This document shows, in pieces, positions 21,806 through 64,000 of a stretch of 64,000 nt of DNA. The position numbers were made by a program, and so were the translations under genes. Positions within the stretch are counted from its first letter, which is position 1; the number at the start of each line of letters is the position of its first letter. The stretch lies in NCBI GenBank assembly GCA_033060915.1, contig CM065394.1, positions 16,549,501 through 16,613,500 on the forward strand, written 5' to 3'. The stretch is from Euryodendron excelsum. Taxonomy: Eukaryota; Streptophyta; Magnoliopsida; Ericales; Pentaphylacaceae. The notes below the pieces were generated by a model. That model saw nothing but the letters and a program-made list of their open reading frames with translations. It was not told the origin of the DNA and ran no database searches.

Positions 21806-21889
21806 GTTATTTAGTTTCCTTTTGACACTTTAATATTTAAAGTTTGATTTATTTTACACAACTTCTTCAAATATTGTATTTATGATTGT

Positions 21890-23215: not shown

Positions 23216-23560
23216 TGATTTTGCAAAAGAGGGTTTGGGAATAGTTGCTAGAAATGCGCAAGAACAGTGCCGTCTTGGGTATTTCTTCGGCAGTTGTTTC
23301 AGAAGCAATGGGCTTTAGTCCTGTTATTCCCATTGGTGGTGGATGGGATTATAGCGAAGTAATCGTTGAAGGCGATACTAAGTAAATAGTGAAGATGCTT
23401 ATTCATAAAAATGGCAGCAACTGTCAAGTATTGTTTGTAAATCTAATAATATTAGATTTCAATTTGTACTTAGAACTTGTGAAGCATGGGTGGCTCATGC
23501 ATTAGCCAAACGAGTCCTGTGTCTTGAAGTATCTACTTCATGGTCTGAAAGCCTACCTGA
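23216..23560 (+). pseudogene. RNase H-like gene fragment, right of the CACTA insertion
   Basis: Directly after the TCC duplication the frame gives FAKEGLGIVARNAQEQC and YFFGSCFRSNG, the strand after the first catalytic Asp in RNase H-like (RVT_3) proteins. Later, in a shifted frame, EVIVEGDTK is followed by a stop; this is the second strand with its Asp. Further on, HGWLMH matches the 'VAH-LAK' end in shifted frames. Stops and frameshifts show decay. It joins the fragment ending at 14357. Confidence 0.6.
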
Positions 23561-23708
23561 ATGTTTGTCTAGGGAGGTCCATCAACATTGTAGGTTAATC
23601 AACTATTGATTTTGGAAATAAAACTCTTCTCTACCTGAATGTTTGTCTAGGGAGGTCCATCAACATTGTAGGTTAATCAACTATTGATTTTGGAAATAAA
23701 ACTCTTCT
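23553..23708. repeat. Perfect-looking 78-bp tandem duplication
   Basis: The block starting CTACCTGAATGTTTGTCTAG occurs at 23553-23630 and again at 23631-23708 with no difference I can see. It lies at the 3' end of the RNase H-like pseudogene. Confidence 0.9.
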
Positions 23709-34461: not shown

Positions 34462-34985
34462 TGTTGGCTTTATGGGTCAGCAATTGGCCTTTGACTTGGT
34501 TAAGTCTTATTGGGGACCTATATAGAGTACATGACTGGCTAACCCGTGCCACTTACATGGCATAAACCCTTATGTCTACCTACCACTTAATGCGAAACTC
34601 TACGCTGCTAAGGCATAAGAAAATAAAGATGCGCCTTATCTAACAGCAATTGTTTTTGGTGCAGTCTTAAGCGCTTAATCCTAAACTTAGAATCATAGCG
34701 AGGTCATGGGTTCGAGTTCTAGGGTCGTTGCTTTGGGGGAGGGGGGGGGGAGATTGTTGGCTTTATGGGGGCCAACAGTTGACTTTTGACTCGTTTAGGT
34801 CTTATGGGAACCCACATGGAATACATGACTAGCCAACCTGTGGCACTTACATGGTGCAAACCCTCATGCCTACCTGCCACTTAATGCGGGGCTCTACGCT
34901 GCTAAGGTATAAGGATATAAAGTTGCGCCTTGACGAACAACAATTATTTTTGGTGCAGTAGTAAGCACTTGATTCTAAACCAAAT
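34462..34985 (+). mobile_element. TRIM-like pair of ~230-bp direct repeats
   Basis: A block starting TGTTGGCTTTATGGG at 34462 is repeated from 34755 (offset 293 bp). Both copies share TACATGACT, GCCACTTACATGG, CCACTTAATGC and CTCTACGCTGCTAAGG. The ~60 bases between them end in a G-rich purine tract (about 34735-34753) just before the second TGTTGG, as a polypurine tract would. The copies do not end in a clear CA, and the second one stops where another LTR begins at 34986. A tRNA-like A box (TGGTGCAGTCTTAAG) and B box (GGTTCGAGTTC) occur about 45 bases apart at 34660-34718, so a SINE-like origin is an alternative. Confidence 0.4.
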
Positions 34986-36630
34986 TGTTAGCCTTAAGTT
35001 TATTCATATGAAATTTTATATATAGTTTTGATGATAACTTACTTTAGTTTATCAATGTTTTCTTGATTAAATATATTCAATACTTTTGATCCATGGTCTA
35101 ATTGGTATAATAAAATTTTACAAAATTATGAACCACTTGAAAGAGAGATCAAGACTTGGAAAGTAATATTTAAATTCTTGAGAATCATGTTTTAAGAAAA
35201 CTTGATTCAAGGAAGAAAATTAGAGAACATATTTTTCTTCTAAGGTTGAAAATTCGATGAAACTATATTCTATGATACAGTCATAGTATTCTGTCCATAT
35301 CTTTTGATTCAACCGTTAGATTGATCTATTTTTTAAGTTAGGAAAACATGACTTTCATATCCATAACTTTTCTCCTATATACATTTTCAAATTCAAACAT
35401 TATAAGGGAGAAAATTAAGGTGGAAGTAAAGGCAACTCTGCAAAAATTCAAATATACCGACTGAAAGATAGTTTGAATATTTTGATCATAAGTTTTGATC
35501 TGACCATTGGATCGACCTGATTCTTAAGGTTAGGAAAATCTGACTTCCATGTCTACAACTTTTATCTTATATTCACTTTCAAATTCGAACGTTATCAAGG
35601 CTAAAATTGATCTAGAAGTGAAGGCATCTGTGCAGAAATTAAAATATGCTAGCTAGGAGACAGTTTGAGTAATTTGATTATAAATTTTAATCTGACCATT
35701 GGATTGACCTGATTCTTGACGTTTTGAAAATTTAACTTCCATATCTACAACCTGTATGTTATAACTATGTTCAAATTCGAACTTTATCAAAGAGAAAATC
35801 GAGGTGGAAGTGAAGCGATCTGATTAGAAATTCAACAACAAATCTGACAGCAACTTGCTCAACGAGAATAATTGTTTTAAATGCTCTCCAACGGCTAGAA
35901 ACTCATTTGAAGCTACAAATCAGTCTTCAATATTCATCTATATATAAAGATACACTTGAGGAGCAATCAAGAACAACAAGAGCAACAAGAGTTTGTGCAT
36001 CAAAGTGATATTCATCCTACAAAGTCTTTGAGAGCTTAATTGTCTTTTATCTTGAAATGTTTTGAGAGCTTCATTAGCATATCTACTCTTTGAGAGAATT
36101 CATTTATAGGTAAAAGTGGTTGTACTCTTGTTCTTTTTTCTTATAAAGGAGAGATTAGCTAGGAAAAATAGTTAAGGGTTGGGTGTAACTAGCATTTGTA
36201 TAAAAATTAGTTGGAGTGAGGGATTACTTGGTTGGGTGTGACTAGCACTTATGTAAAAACTAGTTGGAGAGGTGTGACTAGCATCTGGGAAAAAAAACTA
36301 GTTGTAAAGGAGGACTAACGCCTAGGTTAAAAGGTTAGTGGTTGTATCTACGATTTAGATGTAGTGGAGAAAAATCTCAAGAAACGAGTATTGGGGAGTG
36401 GATATAGAATTTGGAATTAAAGTTGAACCATGATAAATCTTGATGTCATATTCTCTTTTCTCTATCTCATTTACATTATAGTTTGAATTGCTTGTATTTA
36501 TTTACAACATATTATTGGTTGATTAATATTTATTTGATATTTAGTTAGAAATTTTTAAATCTAAAATTATTTGTTGAATTATTATTTAAACCTAATTCAC
36601 CCCCCTCTTGGGTTATCACCTGGACTAACA
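34986..36630 (+). mobile_element. Copia-like LTR, solo, without matching target duplication
   Basis: It begins TGTTAGCCTTAAG, has a TTTTGATGATAACT segment soon after, and ends ACCCCCCTCTTGGGTTATC...GGACTAACA. The end motif is shared with the LTR ending at 61698. TGTTAG/CTAACA are inverted, as in an LTR. Three ~190-bp imperfect direct repeats occur within it (about 35270-35830), each with ATTGGATCGACCTGATTCTT-like and ATATCTACAAC-like segments. Flanks are CAAAT and AAAGA, so it may be a recombined copy. Confidence 0.6.
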
Positions 36631-37298: not shown

Positions 37299-37306
37299 TA
37301 TAAAAG
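37299..37306 (+). promoter_or_regulatory. TATA box of the relic antisense gene
   Basis: TATAAAAG lies 215 bp before the ATG at 37521, between the relic's LTR edge and the gene. The younger element has the identical TATAAAAG on its own antisense strand at the equivalent place. Confidence 0.55.
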
Positions 37307-37520: not shown

Positions 37521-38416
37521 ATGGTTGCGCACCTTAGGAAGATGCTTAGCTCCCCTGAGGCTGTTGCCGCTTTCAAGGTGAGGTATCAATTTCTCGAAGA
37601 GGTAGATATCAATCTGGCCCAGGCCAGTGAGTGCACCCTGTATGAGACCAACAAGGGCATACCCTTCCCCTTGATTACCATAGTAGAGGGCAGAGTTTGG
37701 TTCCTTCTCCACCCATTCCTTTTCAAGTTTCTAAACCACTACAGGCTTTCTCCTGTCCAGTTGACTTTGAAAGTTATTAGAATTATCATAGGTATTGTAG
37801 AACTAAACCGAATTCTCAATGTGAATAGTGGTATCTGGGAATTTGATCATTGCTACACCCCTGTTCCAGTGAGTGGAGACTACATAAGATATCACTTCAG
37901 AACTCAGGACTACATTAGAGAGGTTGTCCAGGTCCTACCCAACTTGGGTAAGGGTGTGGACAACGTGATGGTGTGGCTAATGGGGCCATGGAAATTCAGG
38001 AATATCTTTGAAGACCAAAGGCCGACACAATGTTGCCCTAGGGTTCCTCGTAAAATAGGTCTACACTAATCTTTCTTTGCACTTTTGTACACGACTAAGC
38101 CTGCTAATATCAAATCATAATTACCTCTTCTGTGTTTTCAGCCACCTTTGGTAAAAGGAGCAGGAAGAAAGAACACCTTAGGGTAGAGATACCGTCTCTG
38201 AAGAAAATTTGGGAATACAAAGGCAAAGGTCAGCAGGCAGGAGTAGGTACAATGGCACACATTATACTCCGATAGCCACTGCGTTATCAAACCTTCATAG
38301 CAACATCAGGGATTCCTACTAATGTTATTGCTACTCTGACAGAGCAAAGAAAGACTATAGATCCTGAGGATATCCTTGAAGGAGTGGTTATCCCTCAGTA
38401 CACGATTCAAGTCTAG
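37521..38416 (+). pseudogene. Tat-element antisense gene, relic copy with conserved intron
   Basis: Exon 1 (37521-38058) starts at an ATG and encodes a protein beginning MVAHLRKMLSSPEAV. It aligns throughout with the young copy (MASRLRKMLDGPSAL): shared blocks include KGIPFPLITIVEG/KGVPFPVIAIVEG, GKGVDNVMVW/GKGVDDVRVW and CPRVP. A GT-AG intron (38059-38141, 83 nt, ending TGTTTTCAG) sits at the same place and phase (phase 1) as in the young copy. Exon 2 gives KRSRKKEHL and LRYQTFIATSGIPTNVIA, with an in-frame TAG near 38276 and a TAG at 38414. Function is unknown; similar extra ORFs are recorded for Tat-lineage elements. The Ogre-like LTR cuts the gene downstream. Confidence 0.75.
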
Positions 38417-38517
38417 TGACTGTGGCCACTACTGTTGTTGAAACTAAAGTTAGATAACGTGGTCCCTGATACCGAGGACTTCGGGCCATCAAGCTGGTCT
38501 CGGTTTGAAGCGCCGAT

Positions 38518-41500
38518 TGTAAGTACCCCATTTTTGCCCCTCGGCAATCTTTGGCCCGACCGGACTCATATTCAAACCGACACAGACACATTTAAGTCCA
38601 AACTGACTTTCCAAACTCAATCCAAAGAATCAACCACTTCACGGGCCTGCTAGGCCTAATAGTGGTAAAATAACCAAAAGGCCCTTGGAGCCTTGCTCAG
38701 TCCAATTCTAGTTAGCAGGTTTTCTTAAAGTCAGTAAGTCTGTATTTCAATTTCAATTCCAGTTTCAATTTCAGTCAAACTCAATTCGGCATGTCTTTAA
38801 AGAAAATTAATCCCTTAGATGGTAAGTCCATCCAACATGGCACGTTTATCGAGAAAGCATAAAATCTTTAGGAACGATAAGTCCCTTCACACTAGTCAAC
38901 CGGGACAGAACCCAAGTCCCCGAGATGGTAAAGCAGATCACTTTTGGTACTTGCTAGCCTGTCAAAATAGAATGTCCATTATTCGACACATCATTTGAGA
39001 AAGTTGATCCCTTAGACGATAAGACCATTCGGTAGCTTCTCAAGATCAGGCAGTCTTCAAAATGACCATATACTATCAGAGTAAAAAAAACACTCACAAA
39101 CATCTCAATCATCAGAGTGACAAAAATACTCATAAATAGGTCAACATTGAAAATGCCAACAAACCCCTATGTCACGGGACCATACACGTCTCTTGGTCAT
39201 GACATGTTTATTGAAGGACGGGATACTTTTGGAAACCAACTCATCACACACCATCAGAGTGACGCAAACACTCAAAACCTAAGTCAACACCAATGCCTGC
39301 TAGCCCATTCTAGTAAAAAATAACCAAACTGCCCCTTGGACCCACAAGGTGTGCTTTTAAGAAAAGTACCTAAGACCTCGGAGCGGTAAGTCTACCCTTA
39401 CAAGATTGTCCCAAAGATAATCTAGCACATTCTAGTGCCTTCTAGTCGCTTCTGGATTGATTTCGAGAACATTCGGTCAAAATGACCATTATGCCCCTAG
39501 GCTTCTAATTGTTTTCAAGAACCACACCGGCTCTGTTTATTAAACTGGTTACCTTTCAAGGATACTTCTAATAGTATTCCCAGCCTTCTAGCACTTTTTT
39601 GAACCATTCCGAGTCTATTTTGGTAAACCTGATACAAAATAACCGTTTTACCTCTAGTGGGTAGGTTGGTCACCTTCGGCTCTAGGTATCAAATCGGCAT
39701 TCTCTCGAAATATTCTTAATAGTGTTTCCAACCTTCAAGCCCTTTTATGGATCACTCTGGGTTGATCTAGGTGTTCTCTCTATTTAATTGACCGTTTTGC
39801 CCTTAATGGGTTGGTAACCCTTTTTAACTATTCCAACTATAGTTCTCAAGCAAGCTACCTCCAGGACACTCTTTTAGAGGTTTTCATCCATTCTTAGCCA
39901 CGTCTGGTTACTTAGGACTTTCCGTATCATTCCCGGACTTTTTGGAGTCATTCCTAGTGAAGCTAGGCCAAAAATTGTTTGGTAGTCACTAGGACAAGCG
40001 CTTAAATCTTCTGCCTTACGTCACAAGGGTCAAAGATCCGTTTCTTGCAGTCTTAAAAACTTTCCAAAGTGGCTAGCGCCAGCCAAGCCAAAATTTGGCC
40101 TAGCGCCACTGCAACAGGTGCCAGAGCCAACTTTGGCTACCTATAAATATAGGCCACCCCTTACGTATTTTGGGTCCGCAAAATCACTCCAAAAACTCTG
40201 CCTCTTTGAAAACAGAGCTCGAATTCCCTCAAAACCCTAATTCTCTCAAGCCTCCTCAAACCTTAGCCTCCATACACTCAAACCCTAGCCTCTATATAAT
40301 CTATACACTCAAATCCTTACCTCCAAGCATCCATTGAAGATCAAGTGCTACACATCTAAGGCTGTTAAAGTCCAAGCAAAGTCCATCATTAAAGCGTCAA
40401 AGCAAGAGAAAACAAGATAGGTTTCTATTTAAATTATGCAATCCCTCTCTTTCTCTTTTCTCCTTCCTAACACACTTGGGTTTTCTTCTATTTGAATCAC
40501 CATCTTCTACCTCTTCTTCTTGCATGCTTAAAACAAGGAACCTCTCGGTTCATGCCTAGGAAGGCCATGGAGGGAATCACCGTGTCGACGATTCTCTTTG
40601 AGTTCCACCTAAGACGGTGTGGGTCCGGCCCCCTTAGTTATGTGGTGAAGCCTAACCTTGTATGTTCATGTCCCTATTGCATTAGTTCTGTCATGATCAT
40701 TCATTCAAAAGTGTTTTCAAACTTGCATTAAAAGTTACTTTCAAAACTTGCTTTCAAAACCTTTTTCTTCAAAGTTGTTTTCAAAACCACAACCCTAAGA
40801 TGATTTTAACCATTCTATGGTTAGGGTTGTTTTAGGAAAGTGTTATATTTAATATGACCATCATGGTCCAAATTTGAGTAAATCTTAAATTGTTTTTCAA
40901 GAAATCAAAACTTTGAGATGATTCTAGCCATTCCATGGTTAGGGTTATTTTAGGAAAGCGTTATATTTAAAAGGACTATCAAAGCCCATATTAGGGTTTC
41001 AAACTCTAGTTGTTGTCAAAATCACAACCGTGGAATGATTCTAGTCTTCTCATAATTAGAATCATTTTAGCAAAGTGAGATATTCAAAAGACTTTTAAAA
41101 GTCTATATTCATACCTTTCTCAAATTGTTTTGCAAATCCACTTCCTAAAATTCTTCTCAAAATTTTATTTTCCAAAAACTATTTGTCTTGAAGTTCAAGT
41201 CAAAACCTAAGAGTCCATGTTTAGGAAACTCTAATTTTCTCACATAAAATCATGGCTTTCATTTGCATCAAATCAAAGATTTTTAAAATCATTTTCTACA
41301 TAAAATCATAGATTTCTTACTTCAAAAGTCACACAAGATGATATATTTACAAAATTAAAGCTTTTCAATTTCAAGTCAAATCAAATCTTTCTTAATGTCA
41401 AGATGGTTTTCAAACTCCAATTCAAGTAAAAATGATTTCAAAGTTCAGTTCAATATTTCCAAAATAAGTCCAAATTCTACTATAAAGTTTGATTTCAAAT

Positions 41501-49670: not shown

Positions 49671-49746
49671 GTCCGCGATCCTGAAAATCAAATCAAGGTA
49701 AAGACATCAATATATTGTTGAGTCAATACCTTGATTTTGATGATAA

Positions 49747-50348
49747 TTGTGGGGGAATAACCCCCGGCCCAACCCAATGGATGAGGCCCAATATGCGCAA
49801 ATTAAAGTTGGGGCTGCTTTGCTAGCCCAGATCAGAATTAGAGGGAAGGCCAGACTGCCGACCTCCTTCGCAGCACAGCCCAAACCACGAAAGGCGAGCC
49901 CAAACCGCTAGCGATCTCTGCGCATTAAATGCAGAGTTGACTCGCATTAAATACGCATGCGGCTGCCCATGCGACATTAATGTGCATGTCTGGTTAGCCA
50001 GAATCCTCCGCGACGGTGCGCCAGACCCTGTGAATAATCAGGCTGCGTCAATGATGACACCTACCCAGTAGGCCATGAGAACCTGCTAGTAGGCCAAGGC
50101 AGAACACACTCCCTCAAAGGTTCTATAAATACCCAAGGCACCGAGAGCCAGGTATGGACAGTTAACTCCACGTATTGACAACTTTCATTCATCTTCATCG
50201 ATTAAGCTTGCTAACTTAATCTTCGGAGTGTGATCGGCCCATTACGGGTCGACCCATTCTAACCTCTTCGTCTTGCAGGAGATATTTGGACTCATCCATT
50301 TTTGGGCTTGAGAGTTCGGCCCAGCCTTCCAGTAAAATCCCACCTACA
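49747..50348 (+). repeat. 5' LTR of the Tat element
   Basis: 602 bp, TGTGGGGGAATAACC...CCCACCTACA, about 96% identical to 59287-59887. It carries a TATA box CTATAAATACC at 50123-50133, and its first 25 bases contain a GGGGG...CCCCC inverted repeat. Confidence 0.93.
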
Positions 50349-50350
50349 AT

Positions 50351-50368
50351 TGGCGTCGTCTGTAGGAA
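50351..50368 (+). other. Primer binding site of the Tat element
   Basis: TGGCGTCGTCTGTAGGAA starts two bases after the LTR end. It has the TGGCGYCGTCTGT form common in Tat-lineage elements. I have not matched it to a particular tRNA. Confidence 0.65.
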
Positions 50369-50382
50369 GGCTTAGAAAAACT

Positions 50383-52200
50383 ATGAATCTAGACAATCGG
50401 GACGTAGAGGAGAAAATCACGACGGGAGAGGCTTCGGAGCCTCCTCCAGTAGAGACCTGACCAACTCGGCGCATTGCCAATCTACACCAGCAGATCGGCA
50501 AAGAAGGAGAACACTAAGGTCGAAGATACGCACACCCGCTGAAAGCCACCAGGAAGCACCGGATGAAATGCGGAGGGATACGGGCTATGTCAGGGACAAA
50601 AATTTCCGCAGGAACCATCCTCGGAACCTGGCCCCGTCACCCTCCAGTGGGCGGATCCCGAGTGAGGATACGCTCCGTGCAGCATAGAGGGAAATTCGGA
50701 GGCACGGAGAAGAGATAGTCTACCTCACCTCCCAGGTGCGGGCCATGAGGGAGGCATTCTCTGGCAGAAATGGGCGTAGGAGAGAAGGGTCCCCAGATCG
50801 GGAGCAAGTTGTTGGCACCGGGGATCAACCAGCGCCGCCGGCAAAGGGAAGTTACACCCCTAGTACCGGGCGTTGCGTTAACAGGCACACAGGTCGGCGG
50901 AGGGAAAGGAGAAAAACTCCGCCGAATAACAGTCCAGCTGAAGGAGATCGGCAGAAAGAAGACTGGGAGAAGTGGTACAACGAAAAGCAGGAGGATAGAA
51001 GGCAGCAAATTAAGGAGCTCACAACCCATGACCTGATGAGAAAGGCCCTTGATCAAATTGTATCCACGCCATTCAATGAGGAGATTGAATCTCATCCAAT
51101 TCCTCAAAAATTCACCCCACCAAAGTTCACCCTCTATGACAGGAAGTCCGACCTAATTAACCATGTTCGGCATTACAAACAGCTCATGGTAGTGTGGTGC
51201 AGTGACCATATGCTAATGTGTCGAATCTTCCCCTCCAGTCTGGGAAGTGTGGCCTTACAGTGGTTCGAAAAATTGCCACGTAAGTCCGTTTCTAGCTGGA
51301 GGCAACTAGCTGAGCTTTTTACAACTCGTTTCATAGCAAACAGCTTACAGCCAAAGGAGGTTGACTTCTTGCTAACATTGCGAAAAGAGGAAGGAGAAGG
51401 ATTGCGAGCATACGCCCGACGCTACTGGGAAGCTTATAACGAAATTGACGAGTACAGCGAGCAATTAGCTGTAACTCAGTTCAAGATTGGCCTTCCTAGG
51501 GAGCATCGCTTGTGACAATCCTTAATGAAGAAACCAACCCTCACAACACAGGAGCTAATGCTCAGAATCGAGCACTATGCACGGTTGGATGAAGACATAC
51601 CTCAGGTAGCATCGACCAAGGCCGGCGCTGCAGCCGAAAAGACAAGTAAGAAGGATGCCAAGAAGCCTCGGTCAGAAGATATTGGTCGAGGAAATAGGGT
51701 AACTGAGGGGGTCTATACAGTCTTTAAGGACCCTATCTATAAAATATTGCCCCAGATTCGTGATAAGCCCTTTTTCAAATGGCCGCCAAAGTTGGGAGGA
51801 GACCCATCAACCCGAGACCAGAAGAGATTCTGTTCATACCACCGCGAGAAGGGACATAAGACGGAGCAATGTCAGCATCTGAAAACTCACTTGGAGGACT
51901 TGGCCAAAGCAGGCCACCTTGATCAATTCATCGATCGGGAGAAGACAAAGAATGAAGCCGAGCAACCGCGGGTAGAAGACACAGCTCGGAAAGAACCAGA
52001 ATCAAGGCCGGTACAGGTAATCAATGTGTTGCACAGTTCGGCTGAGTCGTCAACCGTTGACCCACATAGGTACCGAGCCGAGATGCAGAAAGCGGCGCAC
52101 CTAAGGGAAGTGTTGCAGATACAACAACCTAGCAAGAAAGCAAAAGTCGGCAGTGGCCATGTACCAATTTCTTTCACCGATGAGGATCTCGTAGGAATGC
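50383..52200 (+). pseudogene. Tat gag region, several nonsense codons
   Basis: Translation probably began at the ATG at 50383 (MNLDNRDVEEK), but a TGA at about 50458 and a frameshift follow. The main frame then runs from about 50690 to 52300, with a TAG at 50685-50687 and a TGA at 51513-51515. The capsid domain (retrotrans_gag) lies around 51110-51510: FTPPKFTLYDRKSD, a core with ALQWFEKLP and SSWRQLAELFTTRFI, then GEGLRAYARRYW. A zinc knuckle CSYHREKGHKTEQC lies at about 51834-51875. The product would coat the element's RNA. Two of the stops could be C-to-T changes (CAG or CGA to TAG or TGA). Confidence 0.85.
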
Positions 52201-52725
52201 AAACCCCTCATAACGATGCCTTGGTGGTTACGTTAAGAATGGCGGACTGTGACGTTAGAAGATTGCTCATTGACCAGGGGAGCTCGTCCGAAGTTATGTA
52301 ATGCAGCCTCTTCAAACAGTTAGGACTGAACGAGTCCGACCTCCAACAGTCACTTAACCCACTGGTCGGATTCAGCTCAGACCCAGTTTGGCCAATGGGA
52401 AAGTGACGATTCCGGTAACAGCTGGCGGGATCACATTGCAGACCGAATTCCTAGTAGTTAACATACCCTCCCCTTACAATGCCATCATGGGACGAACCTG
52501 GTTGCACCTCATGAAGGCCGTTCCGTCGTCATACCATCAGCTGTTTCGATTTCCAACCCCGGCAGGTGTTGGAGAAATCAAGGGAGACCAAGTGGCCGCC
52601 AAACAATGTTTCCTAACGGCATGTGTGACAAGGACAAAGCCTGAGAAAGTGCAGATAATGGAGCTGCATGAAGACACCCCCACAATTGATGACGTGGGAC
52701 AGACACCCGAGAATAAAGTTGTGGA
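52201..52725 (+). pseudogene. Tat protease region, frame-broken
   Basis: The active-site region is LLIDQGSSSEVM (52263-52298), where the canonical D-T/S-G is D-Q-G, so the third residue before GSS has changed. A TAA follows at 52299-52301 and a one-base frameshift lies near 52385. The second frame (52388-52732) contains YNAIMGRTWLH, the flap and Gly-rich helix of retropepsins. Another frameshift near 52725 leads into RT. The protease would cut Gag-Pol; it is inactive here. Confidence 0.7.
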
Positions 52726-55700
52726 GATCTGAAGAAGATATACATTGATCGGCGAGGAGAAAAATACTTCGTCATCGGCACCTCTCTGTCCAAACTAGAG
52801 GAAAAATCCCTCATCGAGTTGCTGACAAACTTCCTGGAAGTGTTCACCTGGACCCCTTACGACATGCCAGGGATCGGCGCTGACGTCGCCTGTCATCACC
52901 TCAATGTTAACCCAAATTGCCGACCTGTTGTCCAAAAGGGGAGAAGGGCAGCTACCCAGCATGTGGACGCTGTCTTAGAGGAAACGGAGAAGCTTTTGGA
53001 AGCTAGAGCCATTCGAGAGATCAACTACCCAAGCTGGCTATCAAACACCGTGGTTGAGAAAAAGAAGGACGGTAAGTGGAGGGTCTGTGTGGACTTCACT
53101 GACCTCAACAGGGCATACCCCAAAGATCCATTCCCCCTGCCTAAAATTGACCAGCTTTTGGATGCAACCGCCGACTTCGGAAGGATGAGTTTCCTGGATG
53201 TTTACCGAGGATACCACTAGATCCCACTTCACCCCGACAACCAAGAGAAGACGGCCTTCATCACTCCAAGGGGTATTTACTGCTACAGAGTTATGCCCTT
53301 TGGCCCGAAGAACGCCGGAGCTACGTATCAGCGACTGGTCACAAAGATGTTCAAAACGCAGCTCGGCAGAACTGTCGAGGTCTACATCGACGACATGGTG
53401 GTAAAAAGCAAACTGAGCAACACCCACTTGGTGGACCCAAAGGAGGTACTCTGCATCCTGAAAGACTACAAAATGAGGTTGAACGCTTCAAAATGTGTCT
53501 TCGGGGTCGGCTCAGGCAAGTTTCTGGGATTCCTGGTCACACATCGGGGCATTAAAGTGGACCCACGGCAGATTAGTGCAATTCAGAGTATTCATGCTCC
53601 AAGGAATGCCAAAGAGGTTCAGAGATTGACAGAAATGGCCGCTACACTCAACAGATTCATCAGCCGTTCATCGGACAGGTGCCGACCCTTCTTCCAGCTC
53701 CTAAAGAAACAGGAACGGTTCGAGTGGACCCCAGAGTGTGACTCTGCCCTTGCCGATCTAAAAACCTACCTAACCAAACCACCCCTGCTCTCCACCCCTG
53801 TCCAGCACGAGGAACTCTTCCTCTACCTTGTAGTATCAGACCATGCAGTCAGCGCGGTCCTACTCAGGCAAGAAAACCGACAACAATTCCCGGTCTATTA
53901 CGTCAGCAAAACCCTTCTTGGTGCCGAGAGCAGGTACCTACCCCTCGAAAAGCTGACACTCGCACTGATAGTGGCATCCCGCAAGTTGGTGCATTACTTC
54001 AGAACTCACACCATCAACGTCCTCACCAACCACCAGCTCAAACCTCTTCTAAAGAAGGCCGATTTCTCAGGAAGAATTGCAAAATGGGCCGTGGAATTAA
54101 GGGAGTTTAATATCAGGTTCCAACCTAGATCGGCAGTGAAGGGGCAAGTTCTTGCGGACTTTGTTGCCGAGTTCTTTGTCGAGATACCACCAGAAGTAGA
54201 ACAGACCCCAACAACTGGCCAACCGCAACACGAACTCCCCCTGGACCTTTGGGAACAATCTGATCATTGGAAACTCTACGTGGACGGAGCTTCCAATGAC
54301 CGGGGGGCAGGATCAGGCGTCGTACTCATCACACCAGACGGTCTAACCATCGAGCAAGCCATCAAGCTGGAGTTCACTGCCTCCAATAATGAGTCAGAAT
54401 ACGAGTCCTTGCTCGCCGGAATACATCGAGCCATTGAGCTTCGAATTCCTGAAATCGTCATATATTCGGACTCCTTACTTGTCGTAAATCAAATCACGGG
54501 GGAATATGTCACAAAAAGCGACAGAATGACGCAATACCTAGCAAAGGCCAAGGAACTACTCGGCCAATTTAAAAGCTACAAGCTTCGACAGATTAGCCAA
54601 GACAATAACTCACATGCGGATACCCTGGCGACTCTGGCCACGGCTCTGAAATCTGGCTCGAAAAGGACAATCAACGTAGAAACCCTTGCCAAGCCCAGCA
54701 TCTTTCAGGAGGAGGAGGAAGCCCTAACAGCAGAAAAGTTGGGACCATCATGGATGGACCCAATCATTTCTTACCTTGACATAGACCAGTTGCCAGACGA
54801 TAAGGCTGAAGCTCGGCGAATCAAGCATGCATCTCTTAGGTATTGGCTGTCACCAAGTAAGGAGCTTTACAGACGTTCCTTTACATGTCCGTATTTACAC
54901 TGCGTCCATCCGGACCAAGTACAGGGCGTCTTGTTCGAAATCCACGAAGGGATATGTGGAAGTCATGTCGGCAGAAGATCGATAGCACACCGAGCCATCT
55001 CGCAGGGATACTGGTGGCCTTACATGCAGAAAGATGCAGCCCAGTACGTCCTGAAGTGTGACAAATGTCAGAGGTTTTCCCCCATCATCCACCAGCCAGC
55101 CGAGGATCTTGCCACCATTACCAGTCTTTGTCCTTTCGCTCAGTGGGGACTGGACATTGTCGGACCTCTGCCTCGAGCTCCGGGCAACAAAAGGTTTCTC
55201 ATCATGGCCACCGACTACTTTACCAAATGGGTAGAAACGGAACCTTTATCAAACATTAGAGAAATTGATGCCAAAAGGTTTGTATGGAAAAGCATCGTCA
55301 CCAGATTCGGGTTGCCCCGTGCCATTATATCAGATAACGGTACCCAGTTCGATGACAACATCTTTAGATCATTTTGCGAAGGATTGGGGATCAGAAACTA
55401 TTACTCAACACCAGCCTACCCCCAATGCAACGGGCAAGCCGAGATTTCAAATAAAACCATGCTTAATGGAGTCAAGAAGCGACTAGAAAAAGCCAAGGGG
55501 AAGTGGACAGAGGAGCTACCCAATGTTTTGTGGTCCTACAGAACAACCCCAAGGAGGTCCACTGGAGAAACGCCGTTCTCCTTGGCATACGGGGTGGAAG
55601 CAGTCATCCCCTTGGAGATCGGACTACCAACTATCAGATCGACAGCCTTTAACACTGGTGTCAATGACCAGACGGTTGCAAGAGACCAGGATCTTGTCGA

Positions 55701-55992
55701 AGAAAGAAGGGAAACCGCCTTGATTAGGCTTACAGAGTATCAGCGACAGCTAAAACGCTCTTACAACAAGCGGGTCCGCCTGAGAAACTTTGCTCCAGGA
55801 GATCTAGTTCTACGAAAGGTATTGGGGGCAACCAAGAAGGCGGCAGATGGAAAGCTTGGCCCAAACTGGGAAGGCCCCTACAGGGTCACATCCCAGGTCG
55901 GCATCGGCGCATACAAACTAGACACCGTCGAAGAAGGGCGACAATTGCCGCGACCATGGAATGCGACCAACTTGAGGAAGTTCTACCAATAA
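52726..55992 (+). pseudogene. Tat pol: RT, RNase H, archaeal-type RNase H, integrase (one stop)
   Basis: One frame runs from about 52726 to the TAA at 55990-55992, interrupted only by a TAG at 53218-53220 (in GYH*I, a CAG-to-TAG type change). RT: SNTVVEKKKDGKWRVCVDF, then the YIDDMVV active site at 53383-53403. RNase H: about 53730-54160. Second RNase H: YVDGASNDRGAGSG at about 54277-54318 with YSDSLLVVNQ at about 54463, the extra domain typical of Tat. Integrase: HHCC finger (HEGICGSH...CDKC, about 54940-55070), then Asp621 (GLDIVG), Asp681 (SDNGTQF) and Glu717 (QAEIS), numbered from the ATG at 53293. Asp681 and Glu717 are exactly 35 residues apart. The C-terminal GPNWEGPY module ends the protein. 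It is almost intact but cannot be read through the TAG. Confidence 0.93.
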
Positions 55993-56106
55993 TGCAAAGC
56001 TCCATGCACTGTAACAGTCCATGAAATGTGTAAAGCTCTGCTGAAGAATCAATGAAAATGAAGCTATTCAATTGAATCTACTCTGAGCATTCTGTGAAAC
56101 CCAAAA

Positions 56107-56565
56107 ACCAAGTGTAAAAACTTGGTCCTGTCCAAGTTGGGCAGGTAGGCCAAAGAAGGCCAAAACAAAAACCAAGTGTAAAAACTTGGTCCTGTCCAAG
56201 TTGGGTAGGTCGGCCAAAGAAGACCAAAACAAAAACCAAGTTTAAAAACTTGGTCCTGTCCAAGTTGGGCAGGTCGGCCAAAGAAGGCCAAAACAAAAAC
56301 CAAGTGTAAAAACTTGGTCCTATCCAAGTTGGGCAGGTCGGCCAAAGAAGGCCAAAACAAAAACCAAATGTAAAAACTTGGTCTTGTCCAAGATGGGCAG
56401 GTCGGCCAAAGAAGGCCAAAATAAAAACCTAGTGTAAAAACTTGGTCCTGTCCAAGTTGGGGAGGTCGGCCAAAGAAGGCCAAAACAAAAACCAAGTGCA
56501 AAATATTTGGTCCTGTCCAGGTTGGGCATGTCGGCCGAAGGAGGCCAGGAAAGAAACCAAGTGTA
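56107..56565 (+). repeat. Seven 64-bp tandem repeats with hairpin units
   Basis: ACCAAGTGTAAAAACTTGGT recurs at 56107, 56171, 56235, 56299, 56363, 56427 and 56491, with a partial copy from 56555. The spacing is exactly 64 bp. Each unit has ACCAAG/CTTGGT and ACTTGG/CCAAGT inverted pairs, so single-stranded copies can fold into small hairpins. Each also has GGCCAAAGAAGGCC. The array lies between the end of pol and the end of the antisense gene. Variable tandem repeats in this 3' zone are known for Tat/Ogre elements. Confidence 0.95.
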
Positions 56566-56700
56566 AACAACAAAATCAGATGAAACAGATTCAGTTCACA
56601 GCAAAAATCAGATAAGGCAGATTCAGTAATAAACAACAAAACGAGTTTTTCTCATTAAAAGGCATTGATGGTTACAAAAATTAAGAAAAAGAAAGAAAAG

Positions 56701-58925
56701 CTATGCCGACTTCCCCCCCGGCTCTGTAGTTACCCCTGGCGAAATCTCTTCCACATCCTTGGAGGGTTCAGCTGCGGCCTTTAAATTTTCAAGCCTCTCC
56801 TTCTCAGCGACAGCTTCTTTGGCCGCGGCTTTTAACATAAGCTCCCGTCTGTATTGGGCATTTGCCAGCACTTTCTTCTGACAAATGACGCCGTCCTCGG
56901 TAGTATCAAAGTAGTCCGGGCAAAGACCCCACATGTCAGAGGCCTTATCCAGCTCTGCAACGACAAGGGCACCATTCCGACCCTATCGGAATATGGTGCG
57001 ACTAAGGTCCATCATCTCTTCGGCCAAACGCTTGGCCCCCCTCTCTTCACCTCTCTTCAGTGTGGCCTCTTCTTCCACCTTCAGCTTGGCCACTTCAGTC
57101 TTAAGGGTCTCCACCTCCTCATTTGCGTTGTGCAGATCTATGGACTGCACATCGAACTTCTTCTCGAGGTCGGCAAGATCCCTATCCCTCTTTTCAAAGT
57201 TGGCTTTCATCAGCAAAAGCTCGGCGGAAGCCTGCTCGGCCTGTTTCCTGAAGGTGATCCGCTCCTTATTCGCTTCGATCCACTCGAGCTTCAAACGGCC
57301 GTGCTCTTCAATAAGTTGCTGGTGAACCTCGACAAGCTTTTGGAAGCGCGTCATCGCTTCCAAGGAATTCAGACAGCCCTACACAAGTCAGAGAAGGTCG
57401 TTTTTAGGGCAAGTGTCTAAAAAGTCTGTAATCATCGAAAAAGTCAGAGCCGACTTACCAGTATCGAGTCATGAAAAGCGCCCATAAAAACGGCTGAGTC
57501 GCTTGCTTCGCCCAGCTTCGCCACGTCCTTTTTCTGAAGGACGCTCTTCATAACACCAAACGCAACCTCGGGCTGGTCGATCATAGAATCTGCTGTCGTC
57601 ATAGGACGGTCGAGAATGTCCGGAGTGATGGTCACAGTCTCGTCGACCTCGTCTACCGTGCCTTTACCTTTCTGCTTTTTGGGCGCTGGAGTTGGAGTGA
57701 CATCGGGCCTCCTCTTTCTTTGTTGTCGAGTCTTTAGCCTCTGTTGCACGGGAGGGGCCTCCTCCACGGGAGTTACCACCAGCTCGGCTGGAGGAGTTTC
57801 GGCAGGAGTAGGTGTGGCCGACTTTAGCGGCTGTCCTGCAAGAGCAAACATTCTTTCCTTCAGACTCATGCCGTCCATTTCGTTAGGGGATGGGCTCGAA
57901 TCACTTGTTCCGGTGGGAATCTCAACTCGGCGGTCGGGCACAGTGTACGGTGACGATGTGGACGCCGAGCTGTGTGATTTGGTTCACTCTTCTTGCCGTT
58001 CTTCACCAGGTGATGGAGATGGAGGAGCAACTGCGACTGTCATGCCTGTAGGGATGCGCGCCCTCTCGATCGTTATTCCAGTAGGGATTTCCTCGAAGTC
58101 CCCTTCGGCGCCTTCGTCCGCTAATCTTGCAAGTACACTCTGGGGGACACCCGTCTCGGCAGTGAAAGTTGAGTATCGCAGTGGGTAGGAGAGTAAGATG
58201 TGTGCAGCCCAAGCTATGTATCTTAGTCGACCTTCGCCGACGTAGTTCAAGACCTTGTCAAGGTCGTCAGAGTTGACCAACCAGTCGCGAGCTTTTGACC
58301 GCTTCCTTGTGTCTGCAAAAAGTTCGAGAGTTAGTTTGGCTGCAAACTGAAACTGAAAATGACGCACAGTGGGAGAGATCGGCATCAAACCTAGTTCGAC
58401 AGGCACTCTAGGGCATCGAATCGCCAGTCTATCCTTCTCGGGAACGTTGCCGAACTCCCATAGACCGGTTACCCAGACCCTAACGTCGTCGACCCCCTTC
58501 CCTGAGGGAGGCAGACATTTCACTAACTTTAAGGACTTTTTTACTACCCGGAGGTAAACCTTGTAACTACCTCCGACTTTACAAAGAGTGTAGCAGTAGT
58601 CCAGTTCAGTAAGGCCCAGGTTCACCCCCAAGCGCCGATTTATTTCTAGCATACCAAAGAAGATTCTATATACGTTCGACGCTAACTGGGAGGGCGACAC
58701 CTTATTTTTTACTATGAATTTATGAAGAAAAGGGTGGAGGGGAAACCTAAGCCCCCCTTCTACGATGGCAATGACTGGGAACGGCACCCCCTTTTCGGTC
58801 TCCCCTATGCGATAGTCCTCAGGATCGACCAACTCTAAGCCGATTTCATCCGGGACTTCAAACCTAGCCCTAAACGCGGCAAGGGCTGACGGACCATCTA
58901 ACATTTTACGAAGACGGGATGCCAT
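56701..58925 (-). CDS. Spliced antisense gene of the Tat element (unknown function)
   Basis: Minus-strand exons by GT-AG sites and frame: 58925-58391, 58312-57459 and 57378-56701, totalling 2,067 nt (689 codons). The intron at 58313-58390 (78 nt) ends TTTTTGCAG; the intron at 57379-57458 begins GTAAGTC and ends TTGTGTAG. Two nonsense codons interrupt it: TGA at 57984-57986 (about residue 288) and TAG at 56983-56985. The N-terminal domain (MASRLRKMLDGPSAL...) aligns with the relic at 37521. A Pro/Thr-rich middle follows with nuclear-signal-like KTRQQRKRRP and PKKQKGKG, then a Glu/Lys-rich coiled coil in exon 3. There are no membrane or signal segments. Similar extra ORFs have been reported in Tat elements; function is unknown. 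A nuclear coiled-coil protein is the simplest inference. Whether it is transcribed is unproven. Confidence 0.75.
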
Positions 58926-59083
58926 CAGGGGGCAACAGTCAAAACACAGAACACAATGAAGAGCAAAGGAGTTGTGGGCTCAAAAGACACTTATAGTGGT
59001 GGGTACCGAAACAGCTGATGCACACGCTATTCAAAAGGCAAAGGAAAAAGAGCAAGTGTCTTCCAACTGATTAGGGCGTCGGT

Positions 59084-59091
59084 CTTTTATA
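59084..59091 (-). promoter_or_regulatory. Minus-strand TATA box of the Tat antisense gene
   Basis: On the minus strand GTGTATAAAAGACC lies about 160-170 bp before the ATG at 58925 and just inside the 3' LTR. The relic copy has TATAAAAG at the matching place (37299-37306). Confidence 0.6.
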
Positions 59092-59272
59092 CACACCAGA
59101 GCCGTCGATTCGTACACAGTAAAACGACGTTAATCATGACGCTCTGCCGAAGCGTCACGTCGGCCGTCGATTCAATAACGCCCCACCATTGAATTTTCTA
59201 AAATGCCTGCCATTTATGTGGCCGGGTGACCGTTACATCCCTTAGCCGTTTCAGAATCCAAAACGACACAAT

Positions 59273-59286
59273 GGCTGGGGGGCAAT
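59273..59286 (+). other. Polypurine tract of the Tat element
   Basis: GGCTGGGGGGCAAT directly before the 3' LTR. The relic's minus-strand counterpart is GGTTGGGGAGCAAT. Confidence 0.8.
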
Positions 59287-59887
59287 TGTGGGGGAATAAC
59301 CCCCGGCCCAACCCAATGGATGAGGCCCAATCTGCGCAAATTAAAGTTGGGGCTGCTTTGCTAGCCCATATCAGAATTAAAGGGAAGGCCAGACTGCTGA
59401 CCTCCTTCGCAGCACAGCCCAAACCGCCAAAGGCGAGCCCAAACCGCTAGCGGTCTCTGCGCATTAAATGCAGAGTTGACTCGCATTAAATACGCATGCG
59501 GCTGCCCACGCGACGTCAACGTGCACGTCCGGTCAGCCGGAATCCTCCACAACGGTGCGCCAGACCCTGTGAATAATCAGGCGGCGTCAATGATGACGCC
59601 TACCCAGCAGGCCATGAGAGCCTGCTAGTAGGCCAAGGCAGAACACACTCCCTCAAAGGTTCTATAAATACCCAAGGCACCGAGAGCCAGGTATGGACAG
59701 TTAACTCCACGTATTGACAACTTTCATTCATCTTCATTGATTAAGCTTGCTAACTTAATCTTCAGAGTGTGATCGGCCCATTACGGGTCAACCCATTCTA
59801 ACCTCTTCGTCTTGCAGGAGATATTTGGACTCATCCATTTTTGGGCTTGAGAGTTCGGCCCAGCCTTCCAGTAAAATCCCACCTACA
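59287..59887 (+). repeat. 3' LTR of the Tat element
   Basis: 601 bp, same ends as the 5' LTR. TATA box at 59662-59671. About 24 differences from the 5' copy, nearly all transitions, counted by eye. Confidence 0.93.
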
Positions 59888-61703
59888 ATAACAAAACATG
59901 GTTAAATGATCTAATAATTCTACTTAGTGTGCAGATGAATTATTAATTAGATCTTGACTTGAAGCTTATCATAATAGAGGATTTGTGATGCAAAGATTTG
60001 AATAAAAAATGAAAAGCATGATGAGGGGATGTATTCTACAAAGTTGATATTATAAGAAGAAAAAGAAATCTCAAGTTGATGAAAATCTTAGATTGAAGAT
60101 TTATAAGCATGAAGGCATGGCATATTCAACAAGTGGAGATCTTATAAGAAATGAAGATAATGGATATCAAGGAAGAAAAATGAAAATGCTAAAAGTCTTG
60201 ATTGAAAAGATTGGAGACTTTGAGGACTTGAAGATATCTTAGAAGAAGAGACCAACTCAAAGACATGGAAGCTTTCTTGTAAGATTTGATAATGTCTTAA
60301 AGATATGGAAGAAATTACAAGACTTGGAAAGCTTTCTTGGAAGAGTTATTGAAGTCCATGGAGAAGCTATTTTGATTGAAGAATTCTAGAAGAAATCTAG
60401 AAATGAAGATGTTCAAAGAAGAATAGAAAATCAATTGAAGAAATGAAGATTCTAAGTCATGAAAGCTCTGTTGAAGATCTTGAAGAAGACTTGAATCAAT
60501 GGATGAAGCTATAATGATAGAAGAGCTCTACAAGTGATGAAAATGAAAAAAATTTATCTTGAATGGATTGAAGATATTCTTGGAGTCATCTAACCTTGAA
60601 GAAACATTTGCAAGCTTAAAAAAGGTTATTTGAATGATCCTTGAAGAGATTGGAAGCTTTGGAAAAGAATGAATAAAAGTTGCAAAAATATGATTTTTGG
60701 TAAAAAGAGTTGACCCCTCAAGCAAAAAGAGTTTACTCATTCGAACAGAGCCTTGGATTTGTGCTGGAAACTCAAAAGAGTCGACTTCTGGCCAAAAAGA
60801 GTCGACTCATTGCAACAGAGAACAAAAATTCTGCAGACAGCTTAAAAGAGTCGACTCCTGGGATAAAAGAGTCGACTCATTTGGACAGTGACTTAAAAAA
60901 ATCTGTTGAAATGCAAAAAGAATCAACTCATTGTAAAAAGAGTCGACTCCTAGACAGTAACGGCTAGTTTTCTGATAGACGGTATGGGCAAATATGCAAC
61001 CAAATCTTCTCCCATAGTTCTCCAATGGCTAGAATCGATCCATACCTATATATACAAGATACATACAACTTCAAAGAAGGAAAAAAAGAGAGCAATTATA
61101 CCATTCATATCAAGTGCTTGAAGCTGAAAATCACCTGTACCTCACTGCCATATACTTTTGCTGAGTGTTTAAAGTTATCCATTGAGTTGTATTTGTTCAT
61201 ATACTCACTAGGAGAGTTACCCTTTGTATAACCTTTATTCATTCTCACTTGGGTGGGTTTGTAAACTTGTAAGTTTGAGTGTTCTTGGGTAAAAACACTT
61301 GTAAGTTTGAGAGAAGCTTGGACAAAATCTCTTGGGTTTTGAAAGCTTGGGAATAAGCTTTTGTAAGAGTGAGCTGGGCACTTGTGGCAAAACCAGCAGC
61401 TGTGTAAGGAGTATTACATAGTGGAATTCCTTTGAAAGAATCGAAGAAGAGAGGACGTAGGCAAGGTTGGCCGAACCTCTATAAATCTGATGCACTTCTC
61501 TTCTGCCTCTGTTTTGCTTATTTGCTCACTATACATGCTTGCATAAATATATGTATTGATGTATACTTCACTTGCTTGATATATATACTTTGATTAATTG
61601 TTGCTGAAATACATAAATGGTTTTTAGTTGCAATTCTTGATATAAATTCTATAAAACCCAATTCACCCCCCCTCTTGGGTTGCCTACTTGGGCCAACATA
61701 TAT

Positions 61704-63195
61704 GGTATATGCAGTTCACAAGAAAAGAGGCACAGAAAAAAACAAAAAAGAAAGGAAAGAAAAGACCAATACAAATCCTGTTCCCTACTCTTGGCAGAGT
61801 TTACTTTGTCATATTCCTCAGCTTTGAAGTTTTTTTTTTATTTTTAAAAAAGTCTTTCAAAATCAATTCACAAGGTTCTCAAGCTGTTTCCAAAAATCTA
61901 TCTTCAAAGTCAAAATCCAAAGCTAATTTCAAAATCAAATTTTAAGGCTTTATCCAAAATCCATTTCAACATTTTTTTAAATTTTTTCTTCAAAAGCTTT
62001 ATTTAAAATCCATTTCCATGGTTTTTCTAAGCTTTTCCTTCAAAGAGTTTTATTCCAAATCGAGTCTAAAGGTTTTCTAAGTTTTATTCCAAATTAAGTT
62101 TCGAGGTTTTCTAAAATTGTCCTTCAAAAAGATTTAATTCCAAGTCCTGCCAAGTTTCTCAAGGTCTTCTCTGCCAAAAAGGCCCCATCTTCAAACGTTT
62201 TATCTCTTTTTCCTTCAAACAGATTTCATTTCAAAAAATTTCTAACTCTTTTCCTCATTTTGAAAAATTTCAGTAGAGTTCCGTTTATAAATAGTCCCTA
62301 CAACACCCAAAATTTTGCAATAGAATACAAACCGAACACCCCACGATATCACAAGCGCATGCCATGAACAAACACAAAGCAATCTCTGCACATTCCCAAG
62401 GTGTTTGAATTTTCCAATGAATGCTTCTATTTTTCAAAATCTAAGGGTTTTCAAAATACTCATAGAATCATTCAAAGATACTTCAAATATTTTTCTAAAA
62501 TATTCTCATATTTTTCTAAATACATAACATGAGCAATTCAATCAATTTTTCAATTTTTCCTATTTTTCCAGCATTTTTCTATTGTTTGAAAAATTAAAAA
62601 TTTTAAAAATTTTCAGAAAATTACGAAACTTCCCACGATTGTTCAAAACATTTTTCTAAGGTACACTGTACAAAAATCTAGCAAGAAAACTCAACACCCA
62701 AAGCTGTAAGCAAATTCCCAATTTCTACAGAAACCCTTTTTACATGAACATGTAAAACCACTCAAACTCAGTCACATGGGCATTAAAATACAGAAACATC
62801 GCTACCAGAGTGTTCAAAACATATTAAAACATTGATTTTGACTATTTACACAACTCAAATGGAGTTTTACACATCAAAATCAACATAAAACAAACAAAAC
62901 TCATCTCTTGGAGTTCTTCGGAAAATCTTCTTCTCTGGCAACAATTTCAGCAACGGTGACTACTTTCGGCGACTCTTCGAAATCTCCTAAACTCACTCCT
63001 TCAATGCCCAAGGATTCCTTCTAGCAAAACAACTTAAGAAAAGCTCTCAAAACTTTCCACAAACTTGCAAGCCCCGAATGGGCAACTGCACAACTATTAA
63101 TACTCCAGGCCTGGCGCCATTGTGCCAAGGAAACATTATGCCTGGCGCCACTCCTAGTGGATTTTAATAGCTAGGAGTGGGCAAAAATGGGCTTA
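61704..63195. other. Ogre-like internal or LTR-flank DNA, possible antisense promoter
   Basis: Low-complexity TTCAAA/TTTTC-rich DNA to about 62280, then more mixed sequence. Minus-strand TATA-like motifs occur at about 62285 (TATTTATAAA on the minus strand) and about 63100 (GTATTAATAG). GGCGCCA motifs near 63115 and 63145 resemble those upstream of the TATA box in the 38518 LTR. This region lies directly upstream of the minus-strand gene at 49670 once the nested insertion is removed. No coding frame is supported. Confidence 0.35.
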
Positions 63196-64000
63196 AAAGC
63201 GACACAGACACATTCAAGTCCAAACTGATTTTTCATACTCAATCTAGATAATCAACCGCTTCATGGCTTGCTTGCCCAATAGAGGCAAAATGATCAAAAG
63301 GTTCTTTGGGGCCTTGCTTGGTCTAATTCTAGTTGGCACCTCTTCTTAAAAATGATACGTCTGTATTTGAACCTCTGTTTCAGTCCAAGCCAATCAAACT
63401 CAATCCGACACATCTTTCAAGAAAGTTAATCCTTCAGCCGATACGTCCATCCAGGATGGCACATTTATCAAGAAAGCATAAAATCTATCAAAACAATAAG
63501 TCCCTTCACACTTGTCAACTGGGACGAAACCGAAGTCCCCGAGATGCTAATGCGATTTACTTTTGGTGCCTGCTAACCCGCCAATGTAGAATATCTGCTA
63601 TTCAACACGTCTTTCGAGAAAGTTGATCCTTCAGATGGTAAGACCATACAACAGCTTCCTAAGATCAAACAGTCTCCAAAATGAACGCACAACATCAGAG
63701 TAACGAAAACACTCGCAAACAGGTCAACATCGAGAATGCCAACAAACACCTATGTCACGAGACCAAACACGCCTCTTGGCTGTGACACGTTTACCAAGGA
63801 CAAGATATCTTTGGAAACCAACTTATCAGACACCGTCAGAGTGACGGCAACATTAAAAACTCAGGTCAACACTAGTGTCTACTAGCCTATTTTGGGAAAA
63901 AAAATGACCAAACTGTCCCTTGGATCTACTAGACACGCTTTTTAAAAAAAGTACCTAAGACCTTAGAGTAGTAATTACACCCTTTTAAGATTTTCCTAAA
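63196..64000 (+). repeat. Second LTR copy of the Ogre-like element, cut by the window end
   Basis: It matches 38577 onward in the same orientation, starting CGACACAGACACATTCAAGT. The first ~58 bases of the 5' LTR have no counterpart here. Identity is roughly 80% by eye. The rest lies beyond 64000. Confidence 0.7.

What the first reader, a model, noticed from the sequence alone, without database searches (positions are those of the whole stretch)
56701..59100. Three-exon antisense gene with its own TATA box inside a Tat retrotransposon
Seen: four minus-strand frames that look separate join into one 689-codon gene using two canonical introns (78 and 80 nt), and the length is exactly divisible by three. 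A minus-strand TATAAAAG lies upstream beside the 3' LTR. Known: extra ORFs occur in Tat elements. Inference: the introns are on the strand opposite the genomic RNA, so reverse transcription cannot remove them. Their retention together with a TATA box suggests a separate antisense transcription unit that is carried and perhaps selected. The protein has nuclear-signal-like patches and a coiled coil.
Basis: partly seen in the sequence, partly recalled or inferred. Interest (0 to 1): 0.8.

Follow-up and report, generated by a model that had tools for sequence, protein, structure and literature searches.

The report
Antisense accessory gene in plant retrotransposon
A decayed plant retrotransposon carries, on the strand opposite its own genes, a known type of accessory gene that is probably split by one or two small introns; the gene type is known and this copy is broken, but introns in it look little noticed and would be worth testing.

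Summary
The region is the pol-3'LTR part of a decayed Tat/Retand-type Ty3/gypsy element and holds a real minus-strand accessory gene with a weak Transposase_28 (TRP28) match. Antisense TRP28 genes are a published hallmark of Retand elements, and maize Grande's antisense gene is reviewed as having its own promoter and a nuclear protein, so the gene type is not new. Intron 2 is well supported by sequence (the region's only GTAAGT, a spacer closed in all three frames) but has no homologue. Intron 1 is undecided. But here the 78 nt are open and score as coding-like as an average exon window. Exon 1 evolved under purifying selection. Transcription and splicing are unproven. I saw no mention of introns in antisense TRP28 genes in the open papers searched; two key papers were not held. 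New variant of a known kind.

The parts
49748..50348 (+). 5' LTR (TG...CA; aligned block 49745-50350)
   Evidence: 606-bp block 96.0% identical to 59284-59889; TG/CA ends, flanks ATAAT / ATAAC read
50688..55992 (+). gag-pol of the element, broken into at least five successive ORFs
   Evidence: ORFs, frames 0,0,2,1,1; Pfam gag, RT, RNase H, second RNase H-like and integrase domains
56102..56567 (.). 64-bp tandem repeat array between pol and the antisense gene
   Evidence: 7.3 copies, 91% matches
58391..58925 (-). antisense gene exon 1, ATG at 58925, Transposase_28-like domain
   Evidence: Pfam PF04195 E 0.0015 for this exon, below the curated cut-off; 44% and 49% identical to copy B and P0001
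58313..58390 (-). candidate intron 1 (78 nt, phase 1); undecided, may be protein-coding in this copy
57459..58312 (-). antisense gene exon 2; basic clusters; in-frame stop at 57986-57984
57379..57458 (-). putative intron 2 (80 nt), donor GTAAGT
   Evidence: only GTAAGT on either strand of 56000-59280; best consensus of 8 open joins; stops in all three frames
56701..57378 (-). antisense gene exon 3, E/K/L-rich; in-frame stop at 56985-56983; final stop 56703-56701
59084..59091 (-). TATAAAAG, 166 bp upstream of the ATG, outside the 3' LTR
   Evidence: 0.42% of 5000 shuffles of the 361-nt segment hold it
59287..59887 (+). 3' LTR (aligned block 59284-59889)
37521..38058 (+). copy B, exon 1 homologue outside this element
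   Evidence: 45% aa identity
38059..38141 (+). copy B, GT-AG segment at the intron 1 site (83 nt, frame-breaking, phase 1)
   Evidence: no coding-like frame (scores -0.97 to -0.11)
38142..38419 (+). copy B, fragment homologous to the start of exon 2, with an in-frame stop
37299..37306 (+). copy B TATAAAAG, 222 bp upstream of its ATG
   Evidence: 0.44% of 5000 shuffles

Best explanation
This is the antisense accessory gene (TRP28 type, aORF-3R) of a Tat/Retand-type LTR retrotransposon, in a copy that has decayed since insertion. Shown by sequence: gene content and orientation, homology to another copy, past purifying selection on exon 1, two in-frame stops here. Probable: at least one intron, best at 57458-57379. 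Undecided: whether the 78-nt segment is an intron or protein in this copy. Inferred: in intact relatives Pol II starts at the TATA box just inside the 3' LTR, the antisense transcript is spliced, and a TRP28 protein with basic patches acts in the nucleus, probably on element transcription. Introns on this strand persist because the genomic RNA carries only their complement, which splicing does not remove before reverse transcription.
For: Retand-like layout: second RNase H between RH and integrase, about 3.3 kb from pol to the 3' LTR, tandem array, antisense TRP28-like ORF. Homologue P0001 passes the Pfam cut-off (36.4 against 26.2 bits), and its similarity ends at the residue where intron 1 would begin. 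Copy B breaks frame there: unspliced B scores 398 against spliced A, 526 when spliced; that combination is first of 2485. Intron 2: only GTAAGT, closed in all frames, 35% U reached by 0.16% of 1827 exon windows. pN/pS 0.45, bootstrap 0.36-0.55, 178 codons. About 1 stop expected from decay since insertion, 2 seen. Published: antisense TRP28 ORFs in 97% of Retand clusters (abstract); Grande's antisense gene reviewed as transcribed from its own promoter, protein nuclear.
Against: No RNA data. In this copy the 78-nt segment is open and, in the exon-1 frame, scores 4.11 against an exon median of 4.56; only 8.8% of 3025 open non-coding windows and 5.0% of 7349 open shuffles reach that, which speaks for protein there. 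The winning splice leads by little (526 against 520, 519, 519, and 517 with A unspliced). B is a relic with an in-frame stop, so its frame break may be decay. Intron 2 has no homologue. The TATA boxes of A and B do not align. TRP28 matches of A and B are below Pfam's cut-off. Synonymous sites are saturated.
Confidence: 0.7

Rival explanations
1. The antisense TRP28 gene is real but intronless: the 26 codons of 'intron 1' are protein, and the break at 57458-57379 and that in copy B are decay.
For: A is open through intron 1 and coding-like there; unspliced A scores 517 with the best B splice, near the top 526; A and B are both relics. Table 1 of Vicient 2025 marks only five clusters with TRP28 in an ORF under 600 nt.
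Against: The 26 codons have no clear counterpart in P0001 or B and are more U-rich than all 1833 exon windows. The 57458 spacer has three stops in one frame and two in each of the others and starts at the only GTAAGT, so one simple frameshift does not explain it.
Confidence: 0.22
2. The minus-strand frames are a by-product of the sense-strand sequence and never made a protein; the antisense RNA at most acts as a silencing trigger.
For: No RNA or protein evidence; plus-strand ORFs of 194, 136 and 216 aa overlap. Vicient and Casacuberta mention a dsRNA role as possible.
Against: Amino-acid conservation at 45-48% with two other sequences, fewest differences at codon position 2 and most at position 3 (46 and 113 of 178), and a Pfam family shared with plant proteins.
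Confidence: 0.05
3. The gene is a host gene captured recently by this one element in reverse orientation, with its introns.
For: An intron-bearing gene in opposite orientation is what such a capture would leave.
Against: Copy B lies outside this element and is diverged (45% aa), so the gene is older than this element. Vicient reports no TRP28 outside TEs.
Confidence: 0.03

Closest known systems
Antisense TRP28 ORFs of Retand elements (Vicient 2025, PMC11963269)
   Same: Position between pol and 3' LTR, antisense, Transposase_28 domain, tandem repeats nearby
   Different: That paper treats them as ORFs; the word 'intron' does not occur in its main text. Here the gene appears split by at least one intron.
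gene23 of maize Grande (Gomez-Orte 2013, seen only through the review PMC7264820)
   Same: Antisense gene near the 3' LTR, own upstream promoter, nuclear protein
   Different: No sequence comparison made; whether gene23 has introns could not be checked because the paper is not held
HBZ and APH antisense genes of HTLVs (Barbeau and Mesnard 2011, PMC3185765, passages)
   Same: Antisense gene in a retroelement, spliced, regulatory protein
   Different: HBZ transcription starts inside the 3' LTR; here the TATA box lies outside it. Works-like comparison only; no sequence relation tested.
Ogre intron (Tat lineage; Neumann 2019, PMC6317226)
   Same: Spliceosomal intron in a Tat element

Membership tests
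Tat/Retand lineage of Ty3/gypsy | additional RNase H between RH and integrase | tested here: met
   RT_RNaseH 197-296, RVT_3 354-472, Integrase_H2C2 564-620 of the pol ORF; feature, shared with Ogre
Tat/Retand lineage of Ty3/gypsy | long pol-3'LTR region (2,933-6,566 bp) | tested here: met
   55992 to 59287, about 3.3 kb
Tat/Retand lineage of Ty3/gypsy | antisense TRP28 ORF in that region | tested here: inconclusive
   ORF present and antisense; PF04195 E 0.0015-0.0032, under the gathering score; homologue P0001 passes it
Tat/Retand lineage of Ty3/gypsy | placement in an RT tree | not tested
   no tree built
Grande gene23-type antisense gene | transcribed from its own promoter, nuclear protein | not testable with these tools
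   TATAAAAG and basic clusters only
HTLV-type spliced antisense gene | spliced antisense mRNA starting in the 3' LTR | tested here: inconclusive
   start site not mapped; the TATA box lies 196 bp inside the LTR edge; splicing untested

The most novel reading that the evidence does not exclude
Antisense TRP28 genes of a Retand subgroup carry ancient spliceosomal introns at fixed sites. The antisense orientation is what lets an RNA-copied element keep an intron-bearing gene, which points to an origin by capture of a eukaryotic nuclear gene. It may also explain why TRP28 sits in short ORFs (under 600 nt) in some Sambucus and Camellia clusters of the published survey.
Probability: 0.3. Interest if true: 0.65.

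Novelty: new variant of a known kind. Interest (0 to 1): 0.38.

Why it matters
If the introns are real and conserved, surveys that call only uninterrupted ORFs misread these genes as short or broken. The splice sites then give a direct, strand-specific test for antisense expression. Introns would also bear on the open question of where the antisense region came from (host gene, TE or unknown virus).

Tried and rejected
Related loci: viral-contig scans with the first antisense ORF, pol and a three-row exon-1 alignment gave no relative; genome contigs with pol gave one 28%-identical contig in a bacterial MAG, not used; plasmids gave no match. The whole spliced protein found nothing at E 0.001 among the 7996 candidates scored; the first ORF found three proteins at E up to 1 (the third at 0.055); pol found 2020, best 120 listed, many named as plant proteins, so plants are in the database. 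Structure of exon 1: mean pLDDT 45, discarded, no fold search made. Coiled coil: heptad test not significant. dN/dS against pol across family members could not be done for want of copies. P0002 and P0003 entered only alignment A2 and its failed fold (P0002) and were left out of alignment A3. The first dN/dS script timed out and was rewritten.

Errors of mine found on checking: (1) read intron 1 one base out of frame and so made it look non-coding; in the true frame it looks coding-like (controls). I had counted the wrong result for intron 1; odds for the main reading went from 0.75 to 0.70, for the intronless rival from 0.18 to 0.22, for the novel case from 0.40 to 0.30, interest from 0.42 to 0.38.

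Papers: PMC11963269 abstract, section 11 (first of two parts), section 12 and term passages; PMC7264820 abstract, sections 5-8, reference list and term passages; PMC6317226 section 13 and passages; PMC12786077, PMC3185765 and PMC3091746 passages (the last gave nothing on the antisense gene). Gomez-Orte 2013 and Steinbauerova 2012 are not held and were not seen. 'No mention of introns in antisense TRP28 genes' rests on search listings 5, 19, 20, 30, 31, 57, 67, 68, 74 and on term look-ups.

Full report
Setting. The finding lies in a Ty3/gypsy LTR retrotransposon at about 49748-59887 on the plus strand. Its LTRs are 96.0% identical over the 606-bp aligned block (Kimura distance 0.041). The pol ORF has reverse transcriptase, RNase H, a second RNase H-like domain (RVT_3) and integrase in that order; an additional RNase H at this place marks the angiosperm Ogre and Retand elements. 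A 64-bp tandem array sits at 56102-56567. Gag-pol falls into at least five successive ORFs in frames 0,0,2,1,1, so the copy is defective.

The antisense gene. But two in-frame stops remain, at codons 288 and 595, so the single open gene does not exist in this copy. From half the LTR divergence about 42 substitutions, and about 1.0 new stop, are expected in the gene since insertion; two stops fit ordinary decay of a gene that was intact on arrival. The part after the second stop keeps the exons' codon pattern (G at codon position 1: 0.48).

What the gene is. Exon 1 matches Pfam Transposase_28 weakly (E 0.0015, 19.2 bits against a cut-off of 26.2). A 194-aa protein in the database, 48% identical, passes that cut-off at 36.4 bits. 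A diverged copy lies in the same window on the plus strand, 37521-38419, 45% identical over 181 residues. A short stretch upstream of it resembles the sequence at this element's 3' LTR edge (read by eye), which hints that B too belongs to an element; no LTR match was found. Between the two, codon position 2 differs at 46 of 178 codons, position 1 at 80 and position 3 at 113; pN/pS is 0.45 (bootstrap 0.36-0.55), with synonymous sites saturated. The protein was under purifying selection.

Intron 1, for. Copy B breaks frame at the same residue, where an 83-nt GT-AG segment in the same phase restores it. Spliced B scores 526 against spliced A, unspliced B 398. Similarity to P0001 ends at the glycine that the junction would split. 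The segment's U content, 36%, is reached by none of 1833 exon windows.

Intron 1, against. The lead is small: the next scores are 520, 519, 519 and 517, the last with A unspliced. In this copy the 78 nt are open and divisible by three. Read in the true frame, the segment's codon pattern scores 4.11, near the exon median of 4.56, and 46% of 590 exon windows score as low or lower. Of 3025 open windows from parts of the window outside the two TRP28 copies and gag-pol, 8.8% reach that score; of 7349 open shuffles, 5.0%. B's segment shows no such pattern. I therefore leave intron 1 undecided in this copy: it may be protein here and an intron or decay in B.

Intron 2. The segment 57458-57379 starts at the only GTAAGT on either strand of 56000-59280 and is the best-consensus join among 8 that stay open. 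The exon-2 frame has three stops inside it and each of the other two frames has two, so one simple frameshift does not explain it. U content 35% is reached by 0.16% of 1827 exon windows. One closed frame of it still scores 3.01 on the codon pattern. No homologue covers it.

Promoter. TATAAAAG stands 166 bp upstream of the ATG here and 222 bp in copy B, each found in about 0.4% of shuffles, but the two do not align. They are suggestive, not shown to work.

Known context. Vicient 2025 reports antisense TRP28 ORFs in 97% of the Retand clusters (abstract; 'all clusters except two' in the text), calls the feature characteristic of Retand, and proposes DNA binding and a regulatory role. The 2020 review describes maize Grande's antisense gene as transcribed from an upstream promoter and its protein as nuclear, and asks for a look at antisense and spliced transcripts. 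HTLV antisense genes are spliced. The kind is therefore known. Introns inside a TRP28 antisense gene were not seen in the open literature that I searched (listings 5, 19, 20, 30, 31, 57, 67, 68, 74; look-ups), with the two most relevant papers not available.

Mechanism. Most likely, in intact relatives, an antisense Pol II transcript from just inside the 3' LTR is spliced at least once and makes a nuclear TRP28 protein that regulates the element. Shown: gene, homology, past selection, intron-like segments. Inferred: transcription, splicing, nuclear site and function. Antisense introns would survive reverse transcription because the genomic RNA carries their complement, which the spliceosome does not remove; this follows from established biology and the HTLV precedent.

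Noticed in passing
window 19204-21811: Tandem array of a roughly 177-178 bp unit, 14 register copies, satellite-like.
   Followed up: no
window 38571-40400 and 63193-64000: Two stretches about 75% alike in direct orientation; the first begins just after copy B ends, so it may be another element that interrupts B.
   Followed up: partly
window 34511-35835: Short direct duplications of 176 and 192 nt, 76-82% identical.
   Followed up: no
window 23553-23708: Perfect 78-bp tandem duplication.
   Followed up: no
no window place; published Table 1 of PMC11963269: TRP28 is marked as lying in ORFs under 600 nt in Sambucus nigra 2, 3, 4, Camellia sinensis 4 and Camellia oleifera 1, which a frame-breaking intron after about 535 nt would predict.
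   Followed up: no
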